NCBI RefSeq assembly: GCF_006974125.1
Contig: NZ_CP037858.1
Span: 124,001 to 188,000 of the forward strand
Direction of reading: 5' to 3'
DNA length: 64,000 nucleotides
Source of the DNA: Stenotrophomonas maltophilia
GTDB taxonomy: Bacteria > Pseudomonadota > Gammaproteobacteria > Xanthomonadales > Xanthomonadaceae
This document shows positions 19,916 through 21,162 of this stretch, piece by piece; the first letter of the stretch is position 1; every line of letters starts with the position of its first letter. The notes beneath the pieces were generated by a model. The model was not told the origin of the DNA, did not search any database, and worked only from the letters and a program-made list of their open reading frames with translations. Made by a program: the position numbers and the translations under genes.

Positions 19916-21107
19916 TCAGAACAGCTCGACGGTGCCGGCGCCCATGCTCTGCTGGGCAACTGGCTTGTGCGGCGGGCGCTCCCATTCGCTGCGCAGTTCG
20001 CGCAGGCGGCTGCCGGTGCGCTGCAGGGCGGTGGCGATCTCTTCGTCGAACACGCCGCCATTGCGGTGCAGCAGTTCCTGCAGGGCCACCGCTTCACGGT
20101 TGATCGCGGTCAGGCGGTCCAGGTGGGTGTGCACGCCGCCCAGCGCCTGGGTCGCGATGTCTTCGAACTGCAGGGCGCGCACGGCTTCGGCCACGCTGCC
20201 ATCGATCGAACGGGCGCAGTCGGACACTTCGCGCATGCCGTCGCCCAGCGAGGCATTGATCTGCGCGACGTTGTCGAGCATTGCCGCTGCTTCCTGGCGG
20301 GCTTCGCGGGAGCGGTCCATGTCACGCGAGGCCATGTGCGAGACCGTCTCGCGGACCTTGGCGATGGCGTCCTTGGAGCTGTGCGCCAGCTTGCGGATCT
20401 GCTCGTTGAAGGTGGTCGAGCGCTCGGACAGGTTGCGCACTTCGTCGGCGACCACCGCGAAGCCACGACCGGCTTCACCGGCACGCGCCGCTTCGATTGC
20501 AGCGTTCAGGGCCAGCAGGTTGGTCTGGTCGGCGATCGACTTGACGTCTTCCAGCAATGCGAAGATGCCATCCAGGTGCTGCGCCATCTGGTCGATGTGC
20601 TGCACGGTGGTGCTGCTCTGGCCGCTCACCTGTTCCAGCGCTTCCACCAGCTGTTCCATGCGGTGGCTGGCGTGCTGGGCGAAACGGGCAACGTCCAGGC
20701 CGGCATTGCCTTCATCGCCGGCGCGGTCGACGATGCGCGACAGGGCCTGGCTCTGCTGGCGCGACTTGCGGTTCATCGCATCGAAGCTGCCACCGAGGCT
20801 GGAGACGGCCTGGCGGATCAGGTCACGGGCGCGTTCCACTTCGCCACGCGAACCGTCGATTTCGTTGCCGACGAAGTTGCGCAGTTCGGTCAGCAGCTGG
20901 TCCTGCTCACGCAGGACACGGGCATGTTCCGGGGAACGGTGCGCCTGGGCGCGGGTGGTCCACCACGCAAAGCCGAGCCAGCTCAGCGTCATCGTGGTCA
21001 GGATCGCCCAGCGCAGGGCGGCCGGCCATTCGAAACCGATGGCGAAGGGGAGCAGCAGGGTCAGAGCCAGGGGGGGCGGCCAGACGGATGAAAATGCGTG
21101 AGTACAT
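19916..21107 (-). CDS. Methyl-accepting chemotaxis protein, frameshifted near its N-terminus
   Basis: Chemoreceptor signalling to CheA/CheW. The uninterrupted part (from an ATG at 20992, 358 codons) has the MCP hairpin QTNLLALNAAIEAARAGE followed by GRGFAVVADEVRNLSER. Upstream in the same frame is a clear two-helix membrane anchor (LALTLLLPFAIGF ... WAILTTMTLSWLGFAWW) with no start codon. The fitting start, MYSRIFIRLAAP at 21107, is in another frame; the two join if the seven-G tract at 21070-21076 had six (or nine) G. The repaired protein would be 396 residues with almost no periplasmic domain. A sigma28 promoter at 21136-21162 points at the 21107 start. Either a sequencing or assembly slip, a recent mutation, or phase variation. 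Confidence 0.85.
21070..21076. other. G7 homopolymer breaking the chemoreceptor reading frame
   Basis: Seven consecutive G on the plus strand (C7 on the coding strand) lie within the codons for Ala-Ala-Pro just before the first membrane helix. Removing one base joins the N-terminal codons to the long downstream frame. Confidence 0.8.
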
Positions 21108-21135
21108 GGACGTTCTCGGGAGGTGCACGGAGGAT

Positions 21136-21162
21136 GTATCGGCCGTACCCCCTTTCTCTTTA
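21136..21162 (-). promoter_or_regulatory. Sigma28 (FliA) promoter for the chemoreceptor
   Basis: Minus-strand TAAAGAGA-N11-GCCGATAC, an excellent FliA match with exact spacing. The predicted start is ~22 nt before the ATG at 21107, supporting that ATG as the true start. Confidence 0.82.

What the first reader, a model, noticed from the sequence alone, without database searches (positions are those of the whole stretch)
19916..21162. Chemoreceptor switched off by a seven-G tract, between its sigma28 promoter and signalling domain
A near-perfect sigma28 promoter (21136-21162) points at the ATG at 21107, but that frame stops early. The frame carrying both membrane helices and the whole MCP signalling domain has no start codon upstream of 20992, which lies mid-anchor. 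Deleting one base from the G7 run at 21070-21076 joins the two into a 396-residue receptor. A homopolymer at this position is a classic slippage site, so this may be a phase-variable chemoreceptor or simply an assembly artefact. Seen: promoter, frames, tract. Inferred: phase variation.
Basis: partly seen in the sequence, partly recalled or inferred. Interest (0 to 1): 0.75.

Follow-up and report, generated by a model that had tools for sequence, protein, structure and literature searches.

The report
Conserved chemoreceptor gene interrupted by frameshift
A normally well-conserved bacterial sensor gene for steering swimming carries one extra letter near its start in this one genome, which looks like an isolated recent mutation or a sequencing slip and not an evolved on/off switch.

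Summary
The promoter, early-stopping start frame, seven-base run and open signalling frame are all at the stated coordinates. The gene is a short chemoreceptor, 396 aa in relatives: a hydrophobic hairpin, an MCP signalling domain and a well-conserved sigma28-type promoter.

Phase variation is not supported. Of 91 genus genomes searched, 89 had the gene by DNA. Of these, 87 keep one frame; only this genome and one low-quality assembly (G037) carry the longer run. All 80 named relatives kept for comparison are in frame. The run is an Ala-Pro-Leu codon coincidence, shorter or interrupted in 22 of 87 genus and 44 of 80 named copies. Seven is also short for a switching tract.

The assembly looks clean. 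In 196 kb aligned to two relatives there were 13 own-specific small indels. Of the 10 inspected, only this one clearly breaks a conserved gene. Downstream codon changes are mostly synonymous. So the lesion is very recent, or it is an isolated base-calling error. Reads would be needed to choose; I lean to a real isolate-level slippage mutation. Ordinary; low interest.

The parts
21136..21162 (-). sigma28 (FliA)-type promoter, TAAAGAGA-N11-GCCGATAC
   Evidence: Sequence; spaced pattern before the same gene in 167 of 169 loci; one of five exact sites in the genome at this spacing.
21105..21107 (-). Start codon of the receptor, by comparison with the 396-aa relatives (MYSRIF...)
20907..21107 (-). 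Start frame as it stands here: 66 codons, then stop
   Evidence: no homologue found in the protein database and no Pfam match.
21070..21076 (.). Seven-base G run (C in the mRNA) where the frame is lost; relatives have a six-position in-frame Ala-Pro-Leu stretch
20957..21069 (-). Hydrophobic hairpin region of the receptor, lying in the signalling frame (approximate bounds)
   Evidence: Hydropathy of intact relative P0003; translation.
19916..20992 (-). Open signalling frame, 358 codons from its first ATG
20177..20614 (-). MCP signalling domain PF00015 (residues 127-272 of the 358-aa frame)
   Evidence: 106.8 bits, cut-off 34.6.

Best explanation
The gene is an ordinary chemoreceptor of the Xanthomonadaceae with a sigma28-type promoter: a short membrane hairpin plus a cytoplasmic MCP domain. 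Its codons for Ala-Pro-Leu happen to form a C run. In this one isolate the run is one base longer than in relatives. Translation from the normal start therefore ends after 66 codons and little or no receptor is made. The change is most likely a single recent replication-slippage mutation in the isolate, without a dedicated switching function. An isolated base-calling error at the same run is the next most likely cause. Shown: the promoter motif, frames, run, intactness elsewhere, and purifying selection downstream. Inferred: loss of function, and a real mutation as against an error.
For: 87 of 89 genus genomes with the gene and 80 of 80 named relatives kept are in frame. The nearest by DNA of 20 named loci compared, about 96% over 6.4 kb, is in frame (L089). 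The run is shorter or interrupted in 22 of 87 genus and 44 of 80 named copies. In the 358-codon frame the ten nearest named relatives differ by 27-39 synonymous and 0-4 non-synonymous codons, so any loss is recent. Of 13 own-specific 1-2-base indels in 196,270 positions aligned to both relatives, I inspected 10; only the tract clearly breaks a conserved gene. At sites where either genome has a G/C run of six or more, lengths agree with G043 at 10 of 12 and with G060 at 8 of 10; the tract is one of the two mismatches each time.
Against: No reads were available, so mutation and error cannot be separated. A second genome, G037, has the same longer run, which could mean a recurrent hot spot. G037 is a poor assembly: 85% complete, with 14 own-specific small indels in 46,386 positions, one of them a G run of five where relatives have four. 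Most of its other G/C runs that I could match keep the relatives' length (loose matching), so its longer run cannot simply be dismissed. Two other database proteins begin at the internal ATG. P0002 (358 aa, 80 member sequences) is letter-identical to the matching part of G063's protein, whose run is interrupted and in frame. P0037 (379 aa) has scrambled stretches that look like further frameshifts (my reading). The DNA of neither entry was seen.
Confidence: 0.58

Rival explanations
1. Sequencing or assembly error: the isolate's DNA has the same run length as its relatives and the receptor is intact.
For: The site is a homopolymer, singular among the better assemblies, in a gene otherwise under strong purifying selection. 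The only other genome with the longer run is a noisy assembly.
Against: The assembly is complete (100%, 0.24% contamination). Three other six-base runs read normally here. Among 10 of 13 own-specific indels inspected in 196,270 positions aligned to both relatives, no other clear coding frameshift was found.
Confidence: 0.32
2. A phase-variable (contingency) chemoreceptor: the run switches length often and reversibly, turning the receptor on and off in subpopulations.
For: Run early in the coding sequence; frame lost by one base; the same longer run also in the distantly related G037.
Against: Only 2 of 89 genus genomes with the gene have the longer run, and the run is not preserved as a run in many relatives. 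At seven bases it is shorter than the 8-10 reported for a Campylobacter switch (PMC4294202, passages). The 165 other aligned copies (85 genus, 80 named, overlapping sets) all have one length.
Confidence: 0.07
3. Leaky or programmed +1 ribosomal frameshifting on the proline codons (CCC-C motif) still makes some full receptor.
For: The mRNA reads a CCC codon followed by C at the run. CCC-C as the second codon gave up to 1% +1 shifting in E. coli (PMC4519876, passages).
Against: Relatives are in frame and need no shift. The RNA around the run folds less stably than its shuffles (z 1.48). The motif here is at about codons 12-13, not at the start, and 1% would give little receptor.
Confidence: 0.03

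Closest known systems
The same MCP gene in other Xanthomonadaceae (e.g. P0003, 396 aa; many Xanthomonas entries annotated at 425 aa)
   Same: Same gene: near-identical signalling domain, and the spaced sigma28-type promoter pattern in 167 of 169 loci examined.
Helicobacter pylori tlpB with a variable G-repeat in its mRNA leader (PMC8295292, passages read)
   Same: A chemoreceptor gene with a G homopolymer that affects expression.
   Different: There the repeat is in the 5' UTR, 7-14 long in the strains named in the passages, and is bound by the sRNA RepG. Here it is in the coding sequence, of one length in nearly all relatives, and acts only by frame.
Campylobacter jejuni Cj0031 poly-G switch (PMC4294202, passages read)
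   Same: Frame-dependent loss of an open reading frame at a G run.
   Different: 8-10 G with reported on and off states; a methyltransferase, not a chemoreceptor.
Methyl-accepting chemotaxis protein, PDB 2ch7 (organism, Thermotoga maritima, recalled)
   Same: Best solved relative by sequence, over residues 89-355 of P0003.
   Different: Domain-level relationship only.

Membership tests
Methyl-accepting chemotaxis protein (PF00015) | MCP signalling domain above the curated cut-off | tested here: met
   106.8 bits against 34.6.
Methyl-accepting chemotaxis protein (PF00015) | Membrane anchor and signalling domain in the same reading frame as the start codon | tested here: not met
   In this genome the start frame ends after 66 codons; relatives meet it. 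It is therefore an interrupted copy of an MCP gene.
sigma28-dependent flagellar/chemotaxis gene | Conserved sigma28-type promoter just upstream (consensus recalled) | tested here: met
   167 of 169 loci.
sigma28-dependent flagellar/chemotaxis gene | Transcription depends on FliA | not testable with these tools
   Needs expression data.
Phase-variable contingency locus | Repeat long enough for frequent slippage (about 8 or more for poly-G; general figure recalled, 8-10 in PMC4294202) | tested here: not met
   Seven here; six or fewer in the other aligned copies except G037.
Phase-variable contingency locus | Repeat kept as an uninterrupted run in relatives | tested here: not met
   Longest C run shorter than six in 22 of 87 genus and 44 of 80 named copies.
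Phase-variable contingency locus | Several run lengths among strains | tested here: inconclusive
   2 of 89 species-level genomes with the gene have the longer run; a set of strains within the species was not available.
Phase-variable contingency locus | On and off cells within one culture | not testable with these tools
   No reads or cultures.
Programmed ribosomal frameshift gene | Conserved out-of-frame arrangement in relatives | tested here: not met
   Relatives are in frame.
Programmed ribosomal frameshift gene | Stimulatory RNA structure near the site | tested here: inconclusive
   One local fold only, less stable than shuffles (z 1.48).

The most novel reading that the evidence does not exclude
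The run is a low-frequency, reversible slippage hot spot: the same longer run arose independently in this genome and in the distant G037, so that chemotaxis-altered subpopulations appear repeatedly through loss of one widely conserved receptor in Stenotrophomonas.
Probability: 0.07. Interest if true: 0.5.

Novelty: already known. Interest (0 to 1): 0.13.

Why it matters
It is mostly a caution. A homopolymer frameshift in a single genome can look like phase variation, and comparison with about 90 species-level relatives removes most of that appeal. If reads confirmed the longer run, the isolate would be a natural loss-of-function strain for a widely conserved receptor. I came across no description of its ligand, but only listings of a few searches were seen, so that is not a claim that none exists.

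Tried and rejected
Database proteins that begin at the internal ATG, as proof of other broken strains: P0002 looked like one, but its letters equal the matching part of G063's protein, whose run is interrupted and in frame; a gene-caller's choice of start is more likely. P0037 also begins there but looks scrambled elsewhere. The DNA of neither was seen. One search scored only the 8000 candidates sharing most words and listed 120.

Search with the out-of-frame N-terminal peptide, to find other broken copies in the protein database: nothing. This is weak evidence, because gene callers may skip such a frame.

Viral-contig scan for the run with its flanks: one chance match in an unrelated sequence. 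The follow-up script printed the matched stretch and then stopped with an error; it was not repeated.

Control runs elsewhere in the genome, each searched over 91 genomes with exact flanks. Window 10315: 29 of 91 genomes matched, 29 of 29 with six. G000:C1 273640: 24 of 91 matched, 24 of 24 with six. G000:C1 275244: 14 of 91 matched, 12 of 14 with six positions and 2 of 14 of other lengths (5 and 8). This genome has six at all three. I did not test which of the three are coding. G037 matched none of them, so they say nothing about its accuracy.

Structure prediction was not run: a coiled-coil MCP fold would not bear on the question. 'No RNA structure' rests only on one local fold.

Full report
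What is there. The window is positions 124001-188000 of a single-contig genome of 4.55 Mb. Its nearest named relatives are Stenotrophomonas maltophilia-complex genomes. On the minus strand, a sigma28-type promoter (21162-21136; consensus recalled) precedes an ATG at 21107. That frame gives 66 codons and then stops. A second frame carries the hydrophobic hairpin and the MCP domain; it has no ATG, GTG or TTG before 20992 and runs to 19916. The frames part at a seven-base run at 21070-21076. Upstream on the same strand lies hflD (21326-21940).

The gene in relatives. P0003, 396 aa, is the database cluster with most member sequences among the closest hits (429). It has a strongly hydrophobic first segment, a weaker second one, and PF00015 at residues 165-310. 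At family level, 211 of 395 sampled genomes, in 28 of 54 genera, have a match to it at E <= 1e-80. The promoter pattern TAAAG-N13..15-GCCGATA, with an ATG within 70 bases and an LAAP or LAPP peptide in one of the three frames just downstream, is present in 167 of 169 loci (89 genus, 80 named; the sets overlap, since several contigs have the same length). The two loci without it were not looked into. At the 14-base spacing the genome has five exact matches. One is this site; two others lie about 1.4 and 2.0 kb upstream of the MCP domains of other receptors, on the same strand. With one mismatch allowed, 20 sites are found against 17 for the reversed control pattern, so only the exact sites carry weight; the control count for exact matches is not given.

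How common is the longer run. One search covered 91 genomes of the genus, this one included; 89 had a DNA match and two (G047, G074) had none. The run could be read by alignment in 87 of 89: 85 have the in-frame length and two have the longer run, this genome and G037. The two not alignable at that point (G016, G021) read through in one frame when translated. So 87 of 89 are in frame. In the named collection 220 relatives were found and the best 80 kept; 80 of 80 are in frame. Of 20 named loci compared by DNA, the nearest, L089 (about 96% over 6.4 kb), is in frame.

Is the run kept for a purpose. In relatives the run spells Ala-Pro-Leu codons. An uninterrupted six-base run is present in 63 of 87 aligned genus copies (plus the two longer ones) and in 36 of 80 named copies; in the other 22 and 44 the longest C run in the aligned stretch is two to five. 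Selection for a switching repeat should preserve the run. Seven-base G runs are under-represented in the window (2 against 17.5 expected).

Is the assembly at fault. I compared 444 kb of this genome (window plus 380 kb) with stretches of G043 and G060 chosen by expected colinearity. Only 196,270 positions aligned to both; the rest was not tested. There this genome has 13 own-specific indels of 1-2 bases. I checked the 10 with few flanking mismatches. Only the tract clearly lies inside a gene conserved in both relatives; two others (139430 and 215469 in the joined stretch) fall in extended frames but upstream of what I judge to be the real starts. G043 and G060 have 17 and 27 own-specific indels in similar lengths, so this assembly is not unusually noisy. 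A second comparison, of the window with five genomes, gave three own-specific indels for the window in 60,669 positions; the other five gave 0 to 3, except G037 with 14 in 46,386 (that filter cannot list the tract, because G037 shares it). Where either genome has a G/C run of six or more, lengths agree at 10 of 12 sites against G043 and 8 of 10 against G060, and the tract is one of the two mismatches each time. G037 is 85% complete. One of its 14 indels is a G run of five where relatives have four; most of its other G/C runs that could be matched keep the relatives' length (loose matching with some spurious partners). The longer run in G037 may thus be error or mutation.

How old is it. In the 358-codon frame the ten nearest named relatives differ by 27-39 synonymous and 0-4 non-synonymous codons. 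The gene has been under purifying selection until very recently, or still is if the extra base is an error.

Other copies that start late. Two database proteins begin at the internal ATG. P0002 (358 aa, 80 member sequences) is identical over 358 residues to the protein of G063, whose run is interrupted and in frame. P0037 (379 aa) has scrambled stretches. Neither shows a seven-base run, and their DNA was not seen; a late gene-caller start or noisy sequence explains them as well.

Could product still be made. From ATG 20992 the protein would lack the first hydrophobic segment and part of the second; no 19-residue window starting in its first 62 residues exceeds 1.2 on the Kyte-Doolittle scale. 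The out-of-frame upstream product overlaps that start by about 85 bases, and I see no good Shine-Dalgarno sequence before it (my reading). Spontaneous +1 shifting on CCC-C as the second codon can reach 1% in E. coli (PMC4519876, passages); this would give traces at most.

Comparison. Known homopolymer-controlled genes differ. In H. pylori the tlpB chemoreceptor has a variable G-repeat in its leader, bound by the sRNA RepG (PMC8295292, passages). In C. jejuni, Cj0031 switches by 8-10 G (PMC4294202, passages). For Stenotrophomonas, one search listed two papers whose titles and abstract starts do not report a phase-variable chemoreceptor (PMC4667094 and PMC10333796, listing only), and another found none. 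Wider searches are (listings). This is not proof that no report exists.

Verdict. Observation confirmed; phase variation not supported (0.07); a recent single slippage mutation in the isolate (0.58) or an isolated sequencing error (0.32). Ordinary.

Noticed in passing
21226-21318: Between the receptor and hflD lies an inverted repeat with GGGTCAGAGCCC at both ends (4 matches with up to 1 mismatch in the window, 0.71 expected), a REP-like intergenic palindrome; the 12 bases just before the seven-base run match it with one mismatch.
   Followed up: partly
L202 (G000:C1:2154500-2160500), MCP domain at G000:C1:2156691-2157164: A second chemoreceptor of the same genome has an in-frame TAG in its MCP match and only a 153-aa open remnant starting from a common start codon: it looks like a degraded receptor.
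   Followed up: partly
L131, L171-L174 (G037): Genome G037 shows 14 own-specific single-base indels in 46,386 aligned positions and 85% completeness, so gene predictions from it should be treated with care.
   Followed up: yes
19602-19817: A 71-codon open frame just downstream of the receptor on the same strand matches no Pfam or NCBIfam family at E <= 0.001.
   Followed up: no
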